DNA of 64,000 nt, taken from NCBI GenBank assembly GCA_018823125.1, contig JAHJIW010000009.1, positions 1 to 64,000 on the forward strand. The letters run 5' to 3'. Position numbers and translations under genes: made by a program. The stretch's first letter is position 1; every line of letters begins with the position of its first letter. Under the pieces are notes generated by a model. It saw only the letters and a program-made list of their open reading frames with translations, searched no databases and had not been told where the DNA came from. Shown in pieces: positions 9,298-21,805 of the stretch. This DNA is from Candidatus Margulisiibacteriota bacterium (lineage in GTDB: Bacteria; Margulisbacteria; WOR-1; JAHJIW01).

Positions 9298-9336
9298 TTA
9301 AGAGGCTCAAAACCTAAATTGATGGGGAGAAGCCCG

Positions 9337-11853
9337 ATGGTAAATAGACTCAAAAACTTTATATTTCTACTCTTAATTTTTACATTTATTGTATCTTTTG
9401 CTGGATCTGCTTGTGCAATTAATATCACGCAAACACCGCCGAACCAAAATGACCTAGTTGAAGATTCTCTCATCAATTCCTATCATGAAAAGATCATAGT
9501 TGACGAACAAGCTGTTTTTACATTGGTCAAAGCGCCGGTTGGATTTACCTTAACTCCTGATGTGCTTGGAACCGGGGCTAATTTAGATTGGACCCCTACC
9601 AATAAATATGTTACCCACGGACACTGGGGAGGTGGACCAGATAATGAAATTGTTATCGAGGCAACCGGAGTAATTACCGGTACCACTGTTCAACATACGA
9701 TCCTTTTGGGTGTATATAACAATAATCCTGTTTTTTATTCTACTAATCCATATTTAGTTCAAGACTGGCCAACGGGAGTGCCTTTGACGATTAACAGTTT
9801 TGATAATGATGATGAAGGTGACCTGGCTGAAAGACAAACTGATCCGGCTAACAGCCCCTTTTATAAGGCAGACCCATTTATTGGATCACCATCCAGTGCC
9901 TGGTCTACCGTAATTGATAAAGAAATTGGAATAGTCAAACTTGGATGTGATGTGGTTGGGTCAGTAAAATATAATATCGTTGCTTTTGACGGTGTTGGAA
10001 GCGAAGCAACCTTTGATCCATGGACTACCTATACTGAATATACTTTAAAAGTTGAATTTGCGCAAAACCAACCGCCGGTGGCAGACAATCAAACGGTAAC
10101 TATTAATGAAGGCGATACCAACATTCAAATAACTTTAACCGGTTATGACGTTTGGCCTTTTGGTATTCCGATCACTTTCTATTCCCAGGTTTTAAATTTA
10201 CCTTCTGGAGCAACTTTAACTCCGGATGCTAACTTTAAAGATAACGGAATTATCTACTATGATCCTCCAAACACGGATTGGAACGGAACCGATACCTTTA
10301 ACTTTAAAGTTTTTGATGGCGGGCTTTTTTCTCAGCCGGGGATAGTAACGGTTCAGGTCCTTCCGATCAATGATGCTCCGGTAGCGGTGGATGATACATA
10401 TGCTGTAGATGAGGGTGCTACCATAACGGTTTTCCCGATAAATGGTGTTCTAAGTAATGATACCGATGTTGACAATAATATTATTCAACTAAATGCAGTT
10501 TTAGTGGACGATGTTGACCATGGCTTATTGAATTTTAACTCTAACAATGGATCTTTTGTTTACGAACACGATGGTTCCGAAACTTTGAGTGATACCTTTA
10601 CTTACAAAGCCAATGATGGCCAGGATGACTCAAACGTTGCAACGGTTACCATAACCATTAATCCTATTAACGATGCCCCGACTGCCGACGCCGGCCCGGA
10701 TCAAAATTCATATTCTGCTTCTTTGGTAACCCTGGATGGTTCCGGATCTTCCGACGTTGATGGAGATCCGTTAAGTTATATTTGGATCAATGCGCATGGG
10801 ATTACCTTAGATGATATATATGCGGTTAATCCAACCTTTACTGCTCCGGAAGTTACTGCTCCGACCACTTATACCTTTACTTTAACGGTCACCGATCCTT
10901 CAGGATTAATTGATAGTGATGAGGTAGATATCACCATCAGCGAAGCTCCGGATTCGATTGCTCCAATTATTAACGCTACGGTCAATGGTACTTTAGGTGA
11001 TAATAATTGGTACGTAAGCGAAATTACAATCGATATGGAAGCCGAAGATCCTGATTCAGGAATTGCTAAGATTGTGTACTGGGCAAATTCTGATGCTCCT
11101 ACCGAAGTTTATACCACTACTGCCTCTGACGTAATTGCAGTGGATGGATCACATACCTTTAGTTGTTATGCCGTGGATAACGTTGGCAATACCAGTGCCA
11201 CGGTTCTGATCGAAGATCTTCATATTGACACTGCTCCGCCTGAAATTACGGATGTAAAGTTAGAGGATACTTATTTAGCAGAAAGCGGTACCGTTGACTT
11301 TGGTGCCGTGATCCCCGGTGTGTATCCTCAGCTTTCCGCCAGTGTTTCTGACGTTATGTCTGGTGTAGCCGAAGACGAAATTTGTATTAGTTTCAACGGC
11401 AGCGATCTTTCACTGAGCGCGAGCGAAGTTACTGGTATCGTTGGCATGGGAACCGCCTATGAGCTTAGTTCTACTTCTTCAGGCTTAGGTGTTGGAACTA
11501 ATGAATTTGAAATTGTAGCGCGAGACTTAGCTGGAAATGAAACAACCTATAACGCCCGGGTTAATGCCGAAGCGCTGATTACTTACGGATACATTTATCC
11601 TAACCCATGGCATTTAGACATACCGTTGAGCATTACTTTTGGAATATCCGAAGCTAAGGACGTTACCGTACATATATATGATGAGGTTTCCAGATTACGT
11701 AAAGTATTGAACTACAGCGCAGTAGCTGGAAACAACACCTTTACCTGGAGCGACGATGTTGGGTTAGGCAATGGATTATATCCATTTAAGGTATTTACTA
11801 CCGCGGATAAGCAAATTTTGTTTACCGGTAAATTAGTTGTGGTGAGGAGATAA
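9337..11853 (+). CDS. Secreted multi-domain protein with cadherin-like, PKD-like and FlgD-like domains
   Basis: The protein starts with a signal peptide (positive MVNRLKN, a hydrophobic core, then SAC-A near residue 26). A cadherin/VCBS-type repeat begins near 345 (NDAPVAVDDTY, VLSNDTDVD). A PKD/REJ-type Ig domain begins near 445 (ADAGPDQ, LDGSGSSDVDGD). Further Ig-like blocks follow to about 740. The last 90 residues form a FlgD-like Ig domain (YPNPW, LGNGLYPFKVFT), a common C-terminus of exported proteins in diderm candidate phyla. The ATG at 9337 is preferred over TTG 9319 because GGGGAG sits 6 bases before it. The stop is 3 bases before the barrel-SLH gene, so the two are coupled. Probably an adhesin or matrix protein at the cell surface. 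Confidence 0.85.
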   Translation: MVNRLKNFIFLLLIFTFIVSFAGSACAINITQTPPNQNDLVEDSLINSYHEKIIVDEQAVFTLVKAPVGFTLTPDVLGTGANLDWTPTNKYVTHGHWGGGPDNEIVIEATGVITGTTVQHTILLGVYNNNPVFYSTNPYLVQDWPTGVPLTINSFDNDDEGDLAERQTDPANSPFYKADPFIGSPSSAWSTVIDKEIGIVKLGCDVVGSVKYNIVAFDGVGSEATFDPWTTYTEYTLKVEFAQNQPPVADNQTVTINEGDTNIQITLTGYDVWPFGIPITFYSQVLNLPSGATLTPDANFKDNGIIYYDPPNTDWNGTDTFNFKVFDGGLFSQPGIVTVQVLPINDAPVAVDDTYAVDEGATITVFPINGVLSNDTDVDNNIIQLNAVLVDDVDHGLLNFNSNNGSFVYEHDGSETLSDTFTYKANDGQDDSNVATVTITINPINDAPTADAGPDQNSYSASLVTLDGSGSSDVDGDPLSYIWINAHGITLDDIYAVNPTFTAPEVTAPTTYTFTLTVTDPSGLIDSDEVDITISEAPDSIAPIINATVNGTLGDNNWYVSEITIDMEAEDPDSGIAKIVYWANSDAPTEVYTTTASDVIAVDGSHTFSCYAVDNVGNTSATVLIEDLHIDTAPPEITDVKLEDTYLAESGTVDFGAVIPGVYPQLSASVSDVMSGVAEDEICISFNGSDLSLSASEVTGIVGMGTAYELSSTSSGLGVGTNEFEIVARDLAGNETTYNARVNAEALITYGYIYPNPWHLDIPLSITFGISEAKDVTVHIYDEVSRLRKVLNYSAVAGNNTFTWSDDVGLGNGLYPFKVFTTADKQILFTGKLVVVRR

Positions 11854-11856
11854 TAC

Positions 11857-14085
11857 GTGAAAACTAAGTTATTTAAAATTTTATTAACTACTTTAATCTT
11901 CGGAATCCTGTTTGCGGCTGCTTCTTTTGCCGTGATTGATCCGATGTACATTGGGGTAGGAGCCAGACCGTTAGGCATGGGTAAAGCTTATGTTGGTTAT
12001 GCCGAAGATGGTAACGCTATGTTCATGAACCCGGCTGGATTAGGCCGCATCGACCGCATTAAGTTTAACAGTATGTCGGCTACCATGATGGGTGACATTA
12101 ACTATCTGGTATTAGGCGGAGTTTACCCATTAGCCGAAGGACAATCGGTAGGCGTAGGTTATGTTGGACTGGGTTCTGGCGGAATTGACCTAAGAGATAA
12201 CAGCGGAAACTCAGTTGGAACTGGTGATTACAACAGTGCAGTTTTCTTTCTTTCTTATGGTCTTAAAGCTAATAATTTAATCTCAACTGCTCCCGAGAAT
12301 TTATACTTAGGCGCTAACTTAAAATACTTCAGCCGTGCTTTAGCTGGTTCTTCTGACATGGAAGAGGGCAGTGGATCCGGTTTTGATGTGGACGTCAGTT
12401 TACTTTATCAAGCTAAACCATGGTTAAGACTAGGTTATACTCAGCAAAATACGTTACCTTCAAGTTTAGGGGCAAAAATCAATTTTGCTAATGGATATTC
12501 CGAAGGAATTCCTTTAGTTTCTAAAGTTGGCGGTAGAGTTCAGGTTTTAGGTGAAAAGGAAACCGCGCTACGCGAAGCTAATTTTGATTTATCAATTGGT
12601 TTAGACGCTGATATTTACGTTACCGAAAAATTACCAACTGCTTTTCACTTAGGAACCGAAATTTGGCCAAATGAAATATTAGCGATCAGAATGGGGCTTG
12701 ACCAAGATCCGAGTGTTAATGGCCTAGTCACTAACATTTGTGCTGGAATGGGTGTTCGTTACCGCGGATTCGAATTTAATTATGCTTACCATCCTTACAC
12801 CGAGTTTTCACAGGATACTACTCACTATTTCTCTATTGCCTATGTTGGTGAATCAATTGTTCCTTTTGTACTAACTGTTGATGCTCCTTCAGATAAAGTG
12901 ATCACTAAAGACGAAAAAGTAAGAGTTTCGGGTAAAGTAGAAGGATTAAAGAGAGATAAACTACGCACCTTAAAAATCAATGGCACTTCCATTGCTTTAA
13001 ATGACGATAAAACCTTTGAAGCTGACGTTACTTTAGAAGTTGGTAAAAACTTAATCAAAGTTGAAGCCGAAAGAAACGACGGGGCTGCGGATCAAGCTAA
13101 AAAGCGCATCCTTAGAATTAAGGAATTTGCTGATATCAACGAAGATACCTTAGCTCACCAAGAAATCGAATACTTTGGCACCATCGGATTAATCGAAGGC
13201 TATCCGGGCGGAAAATTTGATCCGGAAAAAGTTTTATCCAGAGTTGAATTATCTACCATTTTAGTTAGAACTACTAACTTAGAAACGCCAAAAGTTTACG
13301 GACAGGTATTTGGCGATATTTCTTCCAGCCACTGGGCCAATCAATACCTCAAAGTAGCTAAAGACTATTATTTAGTTGAAGGATATCCGGACGGATCGTT
13401 TAAAGCAGATAAAGAAATTAATCGTATCGAAGGCGCGGTGGTGGTTACTCGTTTCGATAATGATATCGAATATCCGGAAGTAGTGGTTTCTAATCCTTAT
13501 GATGATATTACTACTTCTCACTGGGCGGCACCGCACGTAACCGAAGCTAAGGATGCAGGCATGCTGGATTATGTTATTACTGATTCGCTAAACGGACCAA
13601 TTGGCGTTGATCGTTCGCAGTTTGTATCCATGCTGGCTAAAACTGGTATTGGACAACTATTGATTGATCAACTATTAGACTTCGAAACTGGTTATGAAAC
13701 CCCGGATGAAAAGATCGTTTATATTCCTAATAAGATTATTGAACGTAGTGTCGCTGAAAAAGCTATCGAGAAATCTAAAAAATCCAGTTCAGTTAAATCT
13801 AAAAGTACAACTAAAGTTACTCAGCAAAAATCCACCAAATCATATGCAAAAAGCACCAAGAAATCTCAAAAAGTTGATATGGCTAAGCTGCGCAAATACC
13901 TGCAAACCTATGAGAAAACTGATATTGTTGGTACCGCCAACAGCAAAGGCACCGACGGCATGGTTTATATCTTAGGTAACGGTAAGTTCTTGCACGTGAT
14001 CGGATTAGGCGTAAGTATTTATGACGCTAAAGATGGTTCGTGGAAGAAAATTGACTACAATTTAGTGGCCTCAATCGTCAATTAA
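11857..14085 (+). CDS. PorV-type outer-membrane barrel with Ig-like and three SLH domains
   Basis: A signal peptide ends near residue 24 (AASFA). Residues about 25-335 match the PorV/PorQ (UPF0164-like) barrel family, opening with VGARPLGMG, EDGNAMFMNPAGLG and many alternating strands. An Ig-like domain follows (about 337-424). Three SLH repeats start near 424 (FADIN), 485 (FGDISSSHWA) and 548 (YDDITTSHWA), each with the E/GYPDG-F core or a variant. A Lys/Ser-rich linker (about 630-680) leads to a conserved-looking 55-residue end. SLH domains bind secondary cell-wall polymer or peptidoglycan, so the protein may tether the outer membrane to the wall. The GTG start has GAGGAG 7 bases upstream and is coupled to the preceding gene. 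Confidence 0.87.
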   Translation: MKTKLFKILLTTLIFGILFAAASFAVIDPMYIGVGARPLGMGKAYVGYAEDGNAMFMNPAGLGRIDRIKFNSMSATMMGDINYLVLGGVYPLAEGQSVGVGYVGLGSGGIDLRDNSGNSVGTGDYNSAVFFLSYGLKANNLISTAPENLYLGANLKYFSRALAGSSDMEEGSGSGFDVDVSLLYQAKPWLRLGYTQQNTLPSSLGAKINFANGYSEGIPLVSKVGGRVQVLGEKETALREANFDLSIGLDADIYVTEKLPTAFHLGTEIWPNEILAIRMGLDQDPSVNGLVTNICAGMGVRYRGFEFNYAYHPYTEFSQDTTHYFSIAYVGESIVPFVLTVDAPSDKVITKDEKVRVSGKVEGLKRDKLRTLKINGTSIALNDDKTFEADVTLEVGKNLIKVEAERNDGAADQAKKRILRIKEFADINEDTLAHQEIEYFGTIGLIEGYPGGKFDPEKVLSRVELSTILVRTTNLETPKVYGQVFGDISSSHWANQYLKVAKDYYLVEGYPDGSFKADKEINRIEGAVVVTRFDNDIEYPEVVVSNPYDDITTSHWAAPHVTEAKDAGMLDYVITDSLNGPIGVDRSQFVSMLAKTGIGQLLIDQLLDFETGYETPDEKIVYIPNKIIERSVAEKAIEKSKKSSSVKSKSTTKVTQQKSTKSYAKSTKKSQKVDMAKLRKYLQTYEKTDIVGTANSKGTDGMVYILGNGKFLHVIGLGVSIYDAKDGSWKKIDYNLVASIVN

Positions 14086-14821: not shown

Positions 14822-15289
14822 TTGCTGCAAGAGGGGAAGGTTGAATACGGTTTCGGTCCCCATTTAATGCTGGATTGTTATGGTTGTCCTACCGAAAAAC
14901 TAGGGGATGTTGACTTCATTTTTGAAACCCTCGATAAATTCCCGGATAAGATCGAAATGACCAAGCTTATGCCTCCCTACGTGTTTAAGTACAAAGGAAA
15001 AGTTAAAGACGATTGGGGAGTTTCGGGTGTAGTGCTAATTGCGGAGTCCCACATTACCATCCACACTTTCCCGGAAAAACAACATGCTTTTGTTGACATT
15101 TTTTCCTGCAAAGAATTTGATGCCGCCCAGGCCGCCGCTTATTTAATTAAATTGTTCGAAGCCAAAAAACATGATATCCAGCTTTTAAACCGGGGAATGG
15201 ATTTTCAAAGAGACGTAAGACAAAGTGTTGATATTGTGGGAGGCGACCGCCGAGCCTTTTTTGAAAGGCCCCGTTTAACTATTAATTAG
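14822..15289 (+). CDS. speD: S-adenosylmethionine decarboxylase proenzyme, prokaryotic type
   Basis: Makes decarboxylated SAM, the aminopropyl donor for spermidine. The self-cleavage site is E75-S76-H77, with S76 becoming the pyruvoyl cofactor. H81 and C96 sit 5 and 20 residues downstream, the same offsets as the catalytic His and Cys of the Thermotoga enzyme (S63, H68, C83). The TTG start is supported by GAGGAG 10 bases upstream; an in-frame GTG at 14813 is too close to that site. 155 residues, a little longer than the common 120-140. speB follows after 8 bases, marking a polyamine operon. Confidence 0.95.
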   Translation: MLQEGKVEYGFGPHLMLDCYGCPTEKLGDVDFIFETLDKFPDKIEMTKLMPPYVFKYKGKVKDDWGVSGVVLIAESHITIHTFPEKQHAFVDIFSCKEFDAAQAAAYLIKLFEAKKHDIQLLNRGMDFQRDVRQSVDIVGGDRRAFFERPRLTIN

Positions 15290-15297
15290 GACAAAAT

Positions 15298-16122
15298 ATG
15301 TCTTCATTTGCCGAAGCTAAGTTTGTAATTCTTCCGGTTCCCTACGAAGCAACCACCTCATATGGCCAGGGTACTAAAGCTGGACCAGCCGCAATTCTCA
15401 AAGCCCTTGATCAAGTTGAAGAATTTAATCACGAGTTTCAGTTTGATGCCTGGAGAAAAGACGGTATTTATATCCAAAAGGCGCTTTCGGTTGCAAATAC
15501 CAAGCGTCTTCCGGTAAATCAAATTAAAACGGGCATCCAAAAGATTTTGTCCAAAGGTAAAATCCCCATCATGTTGGGTGGAGAGCATTCAATTGCGATG
15601 CCTGCAGTAGAAATTGCTAAAAAGCATTATCCAAAGCTCACGGTATTACAAATTGATTCACATGCCGATTTAAGAAGTAAGTATATGGGGGATAAAGACA
15701 GCCATGCCACCGTCATGCGAAAAATATTAGATATTTGTCCGGCGGTGCAGGTTGGGATCCGCAATATTTCTGAAGAAGGTTATCAATTTGCCAAAGAATC
15801 CGGCCAGCTAAAAAAGATTCACTTTGCCGAAAAGAAATTGAATATCCGAAAAGTTTTGCGACAGCTTTCCAGGGATGTTTATATCACTTTCGATGTAGAT
15901 GCCTTGGATTCTGCGGAGATGCCATCCACGGGCACACCTGAACCTGGTGGATTTTATTATCGACAAGTGCTTGAGCTTATCAAAGCCGTGGCTAAAAAGA
16001 AAAATATTGTTGGGATGGACGTTGTAGAGCTAATGCCGATTAAAGGATTACATGCCCCTGATTTTCTGGTTGCCAAGCTTATTTATCAGGCTATCTGTTA
16101 TATTTCATATTTCTCCAAATAG
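15298..16122 (+). CDS. speB: Agmatinase/arginase-family ureohydrolase
   Basis: Binuclear manganese hydrolase that removes urea from agmatine or a related guanidino compound. Metal ligands are H97 (GGEHS), D120, H122 and D124 (DSHAD), and D199 and D201 (FDVDALD). The C-terminal PSTGTPEPGG loop is typical of agmatinases. Pairing with speD fits spermidine synthesis. The substrate could be agmatine or N1-aminopropylagmatine, and the sequence alone does not decide. No spermidine synthase gene is in the window. Full length, 274 residues. Confidence 0.93.
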   Translation: MSSFAEAKFVILPVPYEATTSYGQGTKAGPAAILKALDQVEEFNHEFQFDAWRKDGIYIQKALSVANTKRLPVNQIKTGIQKILSKGKIPIMLGGEHSIAMPAVEIAKKHYPKLTVLQIDSHADLRSKYMGDKDSHATVMRKILDICPAVQVGIRNISEEGYQFAKESGQLKKIHFAEKKLNIRKVLRQLSRDVYITFDVDALDSAEMPSTGTPEPGGFYYRQVLELIKAVAKKKNIVGMDVVELMPIKGLHAPDFLVAKLIYQAICYISYFSK

Positions 16123-18501: not shown

Positions 18502-18559
18502 CAGTTTAGTCAGTATCAGTATACATTTTTAGGCTCTATCTCATCAAGTGAGGAGCAGC

Positions 18560-19375
18560 GTGTTGAAGAAGATTGTATTAAGTTTAGGTTTTCTCCTTTT
18601 GTTTTCCACGGTTTCTTTTGCGGCTAACGACGGATTAATCTCAATTTTAAAAGACGGGGTGGGTGTCCGCTCTCTGGCGATGGGCGGAGCTTTTACCGCG
18701 ATCGCCAATGATCCTTCCACCGTATTTTATAATCCGGCCGGATTAGCTTATCAAAGTTTAGGGTTGATTCAGGGCTACGATGATATTAATCATCAGCAAA
18801 GTTCCGATTATGATCATACGTTTATTCTTTTTCACTCGATTGCATTTGGACACTGGCTAAAGAAAGATCTTAACGGAAACCTAAATGAAATTTATGCCTA
18901 TAGTATTGGACGCCGTGCTTCGCCAGACATCAGTTACGGAATTACACTCAAAAATGCTCAGTCTAATCAAGCGGGCGGCCAGATATTAGGGTACAGTTAT
19001 GATATTGGAATTTTGGGGGTCATTTCACCGCAATTTAGATGGGGTATTTTGGTGCAGGATATAATTGAAACTTTAGACGTTCCGGCCAGTTTTAGGGCCG
19101 GAGTGGCTTACGCCGTTTTTCCCACCATTATGCTGGCTTCGGATATCGAATTTAGAAATTTAAGAGCAGCGGCGGGCCCTGATATTTATGGTCATTTTGG
19201 CGTAGAAAATAAAATAACCGATGGTTTTGTAATTCGCGGCGGCTACGACCGCAATCATTTTACCGGCGGAGCATCGGTTGGGTTAGGTCCGGTAACAATC
19301 GAATACGGTCTGATTACGGCGACCGAAGGCAATACGTCTTCGGTGCAGATGTTAGGAATGAAGTACGGTCAATAA
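18560..19375 (+). CDS. PorV/PorQ-type outer-membrane beta-barrel protein
   Basis: A signal peptide (MLKKIVLSLGFLLLFSTVSFA) is followed by the family's N-terminal signature VGVRSLAMGGAFTAIANDPS and FYNPAGL. Alternating beta strands continue to the end. 272 residues, shorter than PorV itself. I chose GTG 18560 because it aligns with the MLKK start of the next gene; TTG 18563 has better spacing from AGGAG (18551-18555), and GTG 18548 overlaps that site and is rejected. It sits 12 bases before a second barrel gene fused to a protease, so the two probably act together in the outer membrane. Confidence 0.85.
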   Translation: MLKKIVLSLGFLLLFSTVSFAANDGLISILKDGVGVRSLAMGGAFTAIANDPSTVFYNPAGLAYQSLGLIQGYDDINHQQSSDYDHTFILFHSIAFGHWLKKDLNGNLNEIYAYSIGRRASPDISYGITLKNAQSNQAGGQILGYSYDIGILGVISPQFRWGILVQDIIETLDVPASFRAGVAYAVFPTIMLASDIEFRNLRAAAGPDIYGHFGVENKITDGFVIRGGYDRNHFTGGASVGLGPVTIEYGLITATEGNTSSVQMLGMKYGQ

Positions 19376-19387
19376 ATGGAGGTTTAT

Positions 19388-21805
19388 ATGCTCAAAAAGT
19401 TTATTTATTTACTGATTTTAATTTTAATATTTTCCGGTGCCGCTTTTGCGGATCTTACTGATGATCTTTTTAGGCAGGGGATGGGGATCAGGGCGATGGG
19501 GATGGGGGGAGCAGCTACCGCGGTGGGCGGCGATGCCAGCTCCATTTTTTATAATCCGGCCGGCCTTTCCGATTTGATATTTGAGTATGCGGTAGGCGCC
19601 ACCGATTTAGATCAAGCCGATTATACCGCCAGTCGATACGACCTTTTAAGTATTGGCCCCTTTGCCTATGGAAATTTCGGTTTATCTACATCGCAAGAAT
19701 CGGCGTCAACCGTAATGTACGGTTTTGGCGCCAAGGGGATGGGAGGTTTTAACTGGGGAGTTGCCTACAAAACAGCCCGTTGGAATTTGCTGACCGGAAA
19801 CGGTGAAGGCTGGTCCGCAGATTTGGGAATCCTCTTAAAGATTACGCCGGCGCTTTCGCTTGGTGTGGTGGGACAGGAAATTGCTTTTCAGCGCGGGTTT
19901 CTTGCTCCATCTGCTACGCGAGTTGGCATGGCCCTGATGCCGCTGCTTGATCGTATGCTTTTTGCGGCAGACGTGGAGATTGACGAAGGCCGCCGCAGGG
20001 AAAATTTATCCCATTTCGGGATGGAACTTGAAATTACCAAAGGATTAATCGGTCGGGTAGGCAGTGACCGCGGGCTAATGACGGCGGGAGCCACCTTTCA
20101 ATTCCCGCTGATTGCATTTGAATACGGCATGAAAAATCGCGGCGGATCCCAGGGGTTAATCCAGCGTTTTGGCGGAACCATCCGTTTTGTAAAAAAGCGC
20201 GAAAGAAGCTTTTCTATCTTTGGACCGAAAGAATATGTAGAAATTGATCTGCGGGGAGCAGTTTCGGGTGGAACGGATAGTTACAGTATTTTAGGCGGCT
20301 ATTGTCGCGGATTAGATAGTATTCTTTCAACCCTGCGCCAGGCCAGTCGCGATCCTGGATTGCAGGGTATTTTTATTAAGATATCTGACTTTCAATCCGG
20401 GTTGGGTGGTCAGGCTGTGGTGCAGGAAATCCGGGGTGAACTTGAGGCGGCCAAAGAGTCGGGCAAGAAGATTGTAGTTTATATTGAAAGCTCCGCTTTG
20501 GGAGATGGATATTATTTAGCCAGCGTCGGCGACAAAATTATTGCACCCCAGGGAGCCTCGCTGGGTGGCCTAGCCAAAAAAGTTGAAATAACCCGCATCA
20601 AAGAACTTTACGAAAAATTAGGCATTGAATGGCAGCTTTTTGCTGAGGGTAAAAACAAAACTACCTTCTCCGGACTAACCGAGGGATTGACCCCGGGACA
20701 AAGAGAAATTTTAAAAGGCGTAGTGGATGACTTATACCGCCAAATGCTAACCGACATTTCTGAAGACCGTGAAATTGAACTGGCCCGGCTGAAAGAAATT
20801 GGCGACGGCCGGGTTTTGACCGCCAAGGAAGCCCAGGAACTTGGTTTAATTGATGAAATTGGTTACTTAGATACCGCAAAAAAGATTGCCGCCGAACTAA
20901 TTGATACTAAAGAAGAGATTCAGCTGGTTAAGCCCCAAAACTTAATGCCCGAAAAAGACATGCAGGATTATCTTTTCTCGTATTTTAATAAGGTAGCGGT
21001 GATCGAAGTTGATGGCGAAATTACCATCGGAGGCAGCGGTGATAATTTATTATTTGGAGGCCGTTATATCGGAGCCGACACCGTTTCCGAAAACATCCGC
21101 AAAGCCACCGAAGATACCCAGGTTAAAGCGATCATTTTAAGAGTAAACAGCCCAGGTGGTTCGGCCATTGCTTCGGGACAAATCTACGAAGAAATAAAAA
21201 GGGCCAGAGAAAAAGGAAAAATTGTGGTGACTTCCATGGGAGATGTCGGAGCTTCCGGAGGATATTATATTGCCTGCGCCTCCAATTATATTGTGGCTAA
21301 TCCGGGAACCATAACCGGAAGCATCGGCGTGATCGGAGCCTTGCCCATCATGTCCGGTTTTTACGAAAAGTTTGGTATTAAAAAAGAAGTGGTCAAAGAG
21401 GGAAAATATGCGGACATGTTTTCGGGTCTGCGTAAGTTAACTCCGGAGGAAATCGAATCGATCCGCGTTTTACAAAAAGATACTTATGACGAATTTTTAG
21501 CTAAAGTAATCGCAGGCAGAGAGCTGCCTACGGCAGAAGTAAAAGCCATTGCCGACGGCCGCATCTTAACCGGACATCAGGCTTATGAATTAGGCCTGGT
21601 GGATGAATTAGGTGGTTTTCAAACCGCAATTAACCTGGCTAAGCAGGAAGCCCATATCCGCGGAGAGCCGGTTTTAGTTTATTATGGCCGTCAACCGGGC
21701 TTATTTGTTCAGGTTGGCTCCACGATGCTGCAAATGATGGGACTGGAGAACGGAATTTTACCTGAGGTAAATAAGGGCGAACTGACCGAACTGAAGCTTT
21801 ATTGA
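19388..21805 (+). CDS. PorV-type barrel fused to SppA (S49) protease
   Basis: 805 residues. A signal peptide ends near 21 (SGAAFA). Residues about 22-270 are a PorV-like barrel domain (MGIRAMGMGGAATAVGGDAS, FYNPAGL). The remainder is a two-domain SppA of the 67-kDa type. The N-terminal S49 domain (about 285-520) holds the expected general base K383 in YYLASVGDK. The C-terminal domain (about 540-760) holds nucleophile S623 in GDVGASGGYY, plus VNSPGGSA. Both catalytic residues are present, so activity is likely. Normal SppA is anchored in the inner membrane; this architecture would place it at the outer membrane facing the periplasm. ATG 19388 is chosen over 19376 because GGAGG lies between them. 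Confidence 0.9.
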   Translation: MLKKFIYLLILILIFSGAAFADLTDDLFRQGMGIRAMGMGGAATAVGGDASSIFYNPAGLSDLIFEYAVGATDLDQADYTASRYDLLSIGPFAYGNFGLSTSQESASTVMYGFGAKGMGGFNWGVAYKTARWNLLTGNGEGWSADLGILLKITPALSLGVVGQEIAFQRGFLAPSATRVGMALMPLLDRMLFAADVEIDEGRRRENLSHFGMELEITKGLIGRVGSDRGLMTAGATFQFPLIAFEYGMKNRGGSQGLIQRFGGTIRFVKKRERSFSIFGPKEYVEIDLRGAVSGGTDSYSILGGYCRGLDSILSTLRQASRDPGLQGIFIKISDFQSGLGGQAVVQEIRGELEAAKESGKKIVVYIESSALGDGYYLASVGDKIIAPQGASLGGLAKKVEITRIKELYEKLGIEWQLFAEGKNKTTFSGLTEGLTPGQREILKGVVDDLYRQMLTDISEDREIELARLKEIGDGRVLTAKEAQELGLIDEIGYLDTAKKIAAELIDTKEEIQLVKPQNLMPEKDMQDYLFSYFNKVAVIEVDGEITIGGSGDNLLFGGRYIGADTVSENIRKATEDTQVKAIILRVNSPGGSAIASGQIYEEIKRAREKGKIVVTSMGDVGASGGYYIACASNYIVANPGTITGSIGVIGALPIMSGFYEKFGIKKEVVKEGKYADMFSGLRKLTPEEIESIRVLQKDTYDEFLAKVIAGRELPTAEVKAIADGRILTGHQAYELGLVDELGGFQTAINLAKQEAHIRGEPVLVYYGRQPGLFVQVGSTMLQMMGLENGILPEVNKGELTELKLY

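What the first reader, a model, noticed from the sequence alone, without database searches (positions are those of the whole stretch)
11857..14085. PorV-type barrel with C-terminal SLH domains: a possible outer-membrane-to-wall tether
Seen: signal peptide, barrel, Ig-like domain, three SLH repeats and a Lys/Ser linker. Known: SLH domains bind wall polymers; in Cyanobacteria and Negativicutes an SLH domain precedes a porin barrel. Here the order is reversed and the barrel belongs to another family. Inference: an independent solution to tethering the outer membrane.
Basis: partly seen in the sequence, partly recalled or inferred. Interest (0 to 1): 0.6.

Follow-up and report, generated by a model that had tools for sequence, protein, structure and literature searches.

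The report
Wall-anchored PorV barrel paired with cargo
In a little-known bacterial phylum related to Cyanobacteria, an outer-membrane barrel of the kind that carries proteins secreted by the type IX system is fused to domains that grip the cell wall, and its gene sits directly behind the gene of a secreted protein with a type IX-like tail, which suggests a wall-anchored surface-display unit rather than just a membrane tether.

Summary
The genome belongs to the Margulisbacteria/Saganbacteria (WOR-1). Barrel-then-SLH occurs in all 31 genomes of its class and about 15 others of the phylum, in several copies each. The "tether" reading is only half the story. The gene lies 3 nt behind a secreted protein ending in a type IX secretion (T9SS) type A-like C-terminal domain (CTD). 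Of 53 PorV-SLH genes examined, 34 (38 with corrected starts) directly follow such a CTD gene, against 4 of 466 other ORFs. Of 16 CTD genes genome-wide, 10 are directly followed by a PorV-family barrel. Other barrels in the genome carry LysM, SLH plus LysM, or TPR instead. I read it as a cargo-specific PorV-type carrier whose fused wall-binding domain pins the displayed protein to the wall, doing in one chain what PorP and PorE do in Bacteroidota. csaB is present. Separate OmpM-like proteins exist, so it is not the sole tether. Known SprA and GldM are not found; the export machine is unidentified.

The parts
9319..11853 (+). secreted, Ig/cadherin/PKD-repeat protein (844 aa): presumed cargo of the pair
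   Evidence: Big_9 E 4e-27, Cadherin_4, PKD; hydrophobic N-terminal signal by eye
11593..11850 (+). C-terminal T9SS type A-like sorting domain (CTD) of the cargo
   Evidence: genome search, E 7.8e-23; TIGR04183 in 17 of 18 family members (this member 18.8 bits, below the cut-off of 23); family profile matches the PorU C-terminus 6za2 E 9.5e-8 and PorZ 5m11
11844..11849 (+). Shine-Dalgarno-like GAGGAG inside the end of the cargo gene; the two genes are 3 nt apart
11857..14085 (+). PorV-Ig-SLH protein (742 aa)
11938..12843 (+). PorV/PorQ-family outer-membrane barrel, residues 28-329
   Evidence: NF033709 116 bits over cut-off 90; family profile hits only PorV 6h3i_F in the PDB, E 9e-11
12871..13110 (+). 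Ig-like (Glucodextran_B) domain, residues 339-418
   Evidence: E 2.6e-11
13126..13248 (+). SLH repeat 1 (LSRVE motif; conserved Trp absent)
13309..13431 (+). SLH repeat 2 (HWA, INRIE)
13498..13632 (+). SLH repeat 3 (HWA, VDRSQ; degenerate)
   Evidence: (partial match, residues 550-573)
13750..13880 (+). Lys/Ser-rich linker
13881..14082 (+). small C-terminal domain shared with only one paralogue (L038)
   Evidence: (E 3e-4)

Best explanation
The gene pair 9319-14085 is a cargo-plus-anchor unit. The first gene encodes a repeat-rich surface protein whose T9SS type A-like CTD marks it for export across the outer membrane. The second encodes a dedicated PorV-type carrier: a 14-strand FadL/PorV-family barrel whose outside loops hold the CTD, and whose C-terminus, on the periplasmic side, carries an Ig-like spacer and three SLH repeats that bind a (probably pyruvylated) wall polymer. 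The displayed protein is thus pinned through the outer membrane to the wall. In Bacteroidota the equivalent job is shared by a PorP-type carrier and the separate peptidoglycan-binding PorE. Shown by sequence: domain content, conservation, gene pairing, csaB. Inferred: periplasmic location of the SLH part, CTD-barrel binding, export, wall binding. Unknown: the translocon and its energy source.
For: Barrel is PorV family. CTD is type A-like (the subtilase CTDs in L054 and L140 pass the TIGR04183 cut-off). PorV-SLH genes directly follow a CTD gene in 34 of 53 cases, 38 with corrected starts, with 3 more in tandem behind such a pair; control 4 of 466 ORFs; Fisher p about 3e-35. Most gaps are under 30 nt. 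Of 16 CTD proteins found genome-wide without using position, 10 are directly followed by a PorV-family barrel. The C-terminal wall-binding module is exchangeable in paralogues: SLH, LysM, SLH plus three LysM. csaB is present. Trp and TRAE-like motifs are kept in most SLH repeats of the family. Literature: PorV loops hold the type A CTD in cryo-EM structures (PMC10994853); cognate carriers lie directly downstream of their cargo (PMC12618676); the PorE-PorP-cargo complex is proposed to anchor cargo to the wall (PMC9143113).
Against: No SprA over its cut-off in 74 genomes, and no GldM, so a canonical T9SS is not there and export is unproven. Some PorV-SLH genes have no CTD gene upstream (L034, L036 type). 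Within this genome the distances between barrels and between their CTDs do not correlate once duplicates are removed (r 0.07, 9 pairs), so no sign of one-to-one specificity from that test. The CTD fold also resembles the FlgD Ig domain. No confident structure model. The window protein's own SLH repeats are somewhat degenerate.
Confidence: 0.6

Rival explanations
1. General outer-membrane-to-wall tether: the barrel is only a membrane plug and the SLH domain holds the membrane to the wall, an alternative to OmpM.
For: SLH domains, csaB, many copies per genome, LysM in place of SLH in a paralogue. Such a role would follow automatically even under the best explanation.
Against: Strong pairing with CTD cargo. 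The barrel belongs to the carrier family rather than to porins. OmpM-like SLH-first proteins are present in the same genome.
Confidence: 0.2
2. The CTD-like domain is an ordinary FlgD/Ig-type end domain, and the cargo acts in the periplasm or is bound to the barrel from inside. The pair is then a periplasmic complex with no export.
For: CTD profile also matches FlgD Ig domains. No canonical T9SS translocon or motor found.
Against: The best PDB match is the C-terminus of PorU, ahead of FlgD; TIGR04183 matches 17 of 18 members. The domain is at the very C-terminus and precedes PorV-type barrels. The cargo is built of adhesin-like repeats typical of surface proteins.
Confidence: 0.12
3. A divergent, complete type IX-like secretion system exists here: the two class-conserved outer-membrane proteins with the SprA ~100-residue module (about 1370 and 1030 aa) are the translocons, the CTD-bearing subtilase next to the larger one is the CTD-processing protease, and PorV-SLH proteins are end-stage anchors. 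This extends the best explanation rather than excluding it.
For: The SprA module scores E 1.7e-10 to 3e-6 in both families. The larger one is tail-to-tail with a CTD-bearing protein in all nine loci read; the two of these scanned (L054, L140) are S8 subtilases. The smaller is in an operon CTD-PorV-OMP in L149 and PorV-OMP in L151.
Against: The similarity covers only about 100-170 residues; the rest matches nothing. A similar weak hit occurs in Thermus. No motor found.
Confidence: 0.25

Closest known systems
PorV, type A substrate carrier of the T9SS (Flavobacterium johnsoniae, PDB 6h3i/8gl*)
   Same: Same barrel family by profile; encoded next to proteins with type A-like CTDs
   Different: One PorV serves many cargos in Bacteroidota; here about 16 PorV-family barrels per genome, mostly paired one cargo to one barrel, with C-terminal SLH/LysM/TPR additions. 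Canonical PorV equivalog cut-off (250 bits) not reached (48 bits)
PorP/SprF carriers plus PorE (type B cargo anchors)
   Same: Carrier gene directly downstream of its cargo gene; cargo proposed to be fixed to the wall through the carrier (PMC12618676, PMC9143113)
   Different: There the CTD is type B, the carrier is PorP-type, and wall binding is by the separate OmpA-domain protein PorE; here CTD is type A-like, carrier PorV-type, and wall binding is fused as SLH or LysM
OmpM / SlpA / cyanobacterial SLH-porins
   Same: SLH domain plus outer-membrane barrel in one chain; likely the same wall ligand (csaB present)
   Different: OmpM has one N-terminal SLH and coiled coil before a trimeric porin; here three SLH repeats in one chain after an unrelated PorV-type barrel

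Membership tests
PorV/PorQ family barrel | NF033709 score over curated cut-off | tested here: met
   116.4 bits against 90
PorV/PorQ family barrel | Profile similarity to solved PorV | tested here: met
   22-member profile hits only 6h3i_F PorV, E 9.1e-11
T9SS PorV proper (equivalog NF033710) | Score over equivalog cut-off 250 | tested here: not met
   48.4 bits
Type IX secretion system | SprA/Sov translocon (TIGR04189 over 200 bits) | tested here: not met
   none of 74 genomes; only a ~100-residue module in two OMP families. No positive-control genome was available
Type IX secretion system | GldM/PorM motor | tested here: not met
   no genome over cut-off; no positive-control genome
Type IX secretion system | Substrates with type A CTD (TIGR04183) | tested here: met
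   17 of 18 members match at E<1, best 6.9e-10; L054 subtilase 32.5 and L140 23.5 bits over cut-off 23; the window cargo itself 18.8 bits, below
Type IX secretion system | GldL/PorL, PorK/PorN ring, PorU sortase, PorZ | not tested
   only GldM and SprA were searched
OmpM-type tether | N-terminal SLH followed by coiled coil and porin barrel | tested here: not met
   SLH is C-terminal and the barrel is PorV family
OmpM-type tether | SLH binds wall polymer in the periplasm | not testable with these tools
   csaB present and motifs partly kept, but binding needs experiment
SLH domain | PF00395 over gathering score | tested here: met
   51.6 bits against 20.8
PorP/PorE cargo-anchor | Carrier gene directly downstream of cargo gene | tested here: met
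   3 nt in the window; 34 of 53 in relatives
PorP/PorE cargo-anchor | Type B CTD and PorP-family barrel | tested here: not met
   CTD type A-like, barrel PorV family

The most novel reading that the evidence does not exclude
Margulisbacteria, outside the Bacteroidota, run a type IX-like export and display system of their own: SprA-module outer-membrane proteins as translocons, a subtilase with a CTD as processor, and a family of dedicated PorV carriers fused to SLH or LysM domains that fix each exported protein to the cell wall.
Probability: 0.3. Interest if true: 0.82.

Novelty: new variant of a known kind. Interest (0 to 1): 0.62.

Why it matters
The papers read here describe T9SS as found only in Bacteroidota or the Fibrobacteres-Bacteroidetes-Chlorobi group, and OmpM as the tether of the branch that includes Cyanobacteria. 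A class-wide set of CTD cargo and PorV carriers in a phylum related to Cyanobacteria, with the carrier fused to wall-binding domains, would link two fields: how proteins are displayed on the outer membrane, and how that membrane is held to the wall. It would also bear on whether PorV/CTD display is older than the Bacteroidota machine. The fusion gives support by analogy to the proposal that non-moving type IX cargo is fixed to the wall through its carrier.

Tried and rejected
SprA: the first family (PF14349) gave nothing and no control rang; TIGR04189 gave only the short module. Profile searches of both SprA-module families against the PDB found nothing. The barrel-CTD co-divergence test within one genome was negative after removing duplicates. 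The across-genome correlation of 0.70 is confounded by shared descent and is not used as evidence of specificity. ~300-residue proteins upstream of the 1030-residue SprA-module protein were tested as hidden PorV barrels: three are NHL-repeat proteins, two are unknown, one is PorV. Literature search for PorV with S-layer homology: no paper in the held library.

Full report
The thing itself. ORF 11857-14085 (+, 742 aa) has a signal peptide, a PorV-family barrel, a Glucodextran_B Ig-like domain, three SLH repeats, a Lys/Ser linker and a short C-terminal domain. The barrel passes the curated PorV/PorQ family cut-off (116 against 90 bits) but not the PorV equivalog (48 against 250). A profile of 22 related barrels hits a single PDB sequence, PorV of the T9SS (6h3i_F, E 9e-11). 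The SLH part aligns to the solved Sap SLH domain.

Where it comes from. The nearest records are Candidatus Margulisiibacteriota and Candidatus Saganbacteria. The genome is 1.73 Mb, 94% complete. It encodes some 16 PorV-family barrels and about 14 SLH proteins.

A family, not an oddity. Barrel followed by SLH in one frame occurs in all 31 genomes of the class searched, mostly several times each, and in at least 15 further genomes of the phylum (G014, G028-G039, G041, G042). Two of those outside the class were read in full and keep the same order (L113, L123). In paralogues within this genome the C-terminal module varies: SLH; LysM (L042); SLH plus three LysM (L037); TPR (L033); or nothing recognisable (L041, L043, L044).

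The neighbour. The gene 3 nt upstream (9319-11853) is a secreted protein of Ig, cadherin and PKD repeats. Its last 85 residues belong to a family (YPNPF...G.Y.....GK..V) that recurs at the end of the genes upstream of the other PorV barrels. The family profile matches the C-terminus of the T9SS sortase PorU best in the PDB (6za2, E 9.5e-8), then FlgD and PorZ. TIGR04183, the type A sorting domain, matches 17 of 18 members, and two CTD-bearing subtilases pass its cut-off.

Is the pairing more than chance? A profile search of the whole own genome, blind to position, found 16 CTD proteins. Ten have a PorV-family barrel as the next gene: on C15 (two), C19 (two), C16, C12, C4, C18, C9 and C8, the last being the window. 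A further fragment on C13 abuts a PorV barrel at a contig end. One CTD gene on C15 is followed by another CTD gene. Of 53 PorV-SLH genes read with their surroundings, 34 directly follow a CTD gene, 38 when over-extended starts are allowed for, and 3 more follow such a pair in tandem. Among 466 non-PorV ORFs in the same loci, 4 do (Fisher p 3e-35). Caution: the CTD model was trained partly on these neighbourhoods, but the genome-wide count does not depend on position.

How it may work. In F. johnsoniae the outer loops of PorV hold the type A CTD inside the SprA pore and carry it out (PMC10994853). Type B cargos have cognate carriers encoded directly downstream (PMC12618676). In P. [quoted passage not shown] The present protein joins carrier and wall-binder in one chain. 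Both ends of such a barrel face the periplasm (established knowledge of the FadL family, not modelled here), which puts the SLH part where the wall is. CsaB, which makes the pyruvylated ligand of many SLH domains, is encoded at C4:218184 with 257 bits over a cut-off of 213. Trp and TRAE-like motifs are kept in most SLH repeats of the family; in the window protein Arg is kept in all three but the first repeat lacks Trp.

Tether or not? OmpM-like proteins with a single N-terminal SLH domain are encoded separately (L046 twice, L040; L047 has six SLH repeats). The literature credits OmpM with tethering in this part of the tree (PMC10628300). PorV-SLH would add wall links, but its company suggests that fixing exported proteins is the point.

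The missing machine. No genome has SprA over cut-off or GldM; the tool had no genome that should be positive, so absence is not proven. Two outer-membrane protein families, about one copy each per genome, carry a SprA-like module of 100-170 residues. The larger, about 1370 aa, lies tail-to-tail with a CTD-bearing protein in all nine loci read; the two of these scanned for domains are S8 subtilases. The smaller, about 1030 aa, forms the operon CTD-PorV-OMP in L149 and PorV-OMP in L151. They are the best candidates for translocons, on modest evidence.

Limits. No confident structure. No test of specificity between barrels and CTDs within one genome succeeded. Phyla other than this one were not surveyed except by one close-match scan. 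Only papers in the open library were searched; none links PorV to S-layer homology.

Verdict. Observation confirmed. Interpretation partly supported: a wall-bound barrel, yes; chiefly a tether, probably not. Best filed as a new variant of a known kind: a PorV-type cargo carrier with a built-in wall anchor.

Noticed in passing
L054:3001-9141 (G000 contig 2) and L137-L144: Conserved tail-to-tail pair in nine genomes: a ~1370-aa outer-membrane protein with a SprA-like module and a CTD-bearing protein (S8 subtilase in L054 and L140). Candidate translocon and processing protease.
   Followed up: partly
L149:5527-14000, L151:729-4719, L049: A ~1030-aa SprA-module outer-membrane protein in an operon with a PorV-family barrel, and in L149 also with a CTD cargo; in L145, L150 and L152 it follows an NHL-repeat protein instead.
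   Followed up: partly
window 19376-21805: A PorV-like N-terminal barrel region appears fused to a complete SppA-type S49 peptidase in one 809-aa ORF, preceded by another short PorV-like ORF (18548-19375).
   Followed up: partly
window 14822-16122: Two genes that look like S-adenosylmethionine decarboxylase and agmatinase (polyamine synthesis; by eye, not scanned) lie just past the finding; polyamines decorate the SLH ligand in Negativicutes. Possibly coincidence.
   Followed up: no
L037:8060-10675: A paralogue carries three SLH repeats and three LysM domains on the same PorV barrel, i.e. two kinds of wall binder.
   Followed up: partly
L121:4459-7338: A PorV-SLH relative of 959 aa carries six SLH repeats in two sets of three.
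   Followed up: no
L036 type (L036, L104, L105, L108, L118, L120): A second PorV-SLH subgroup often lacks a recognisable CTD gene upstream; in L108, L118 and L120 the upstream secreted protein ends in a possibly degenerate CTD-like tail (by eye).
   Followed up: partly
G001-G026 other classes of the phylum: Instead of PorV-SLH many of these genomes have ~750-820-aa proteins that match only the Ig-like plus SLH part of the query; what precedes or follows that part was not looked at.
   Followed up: no
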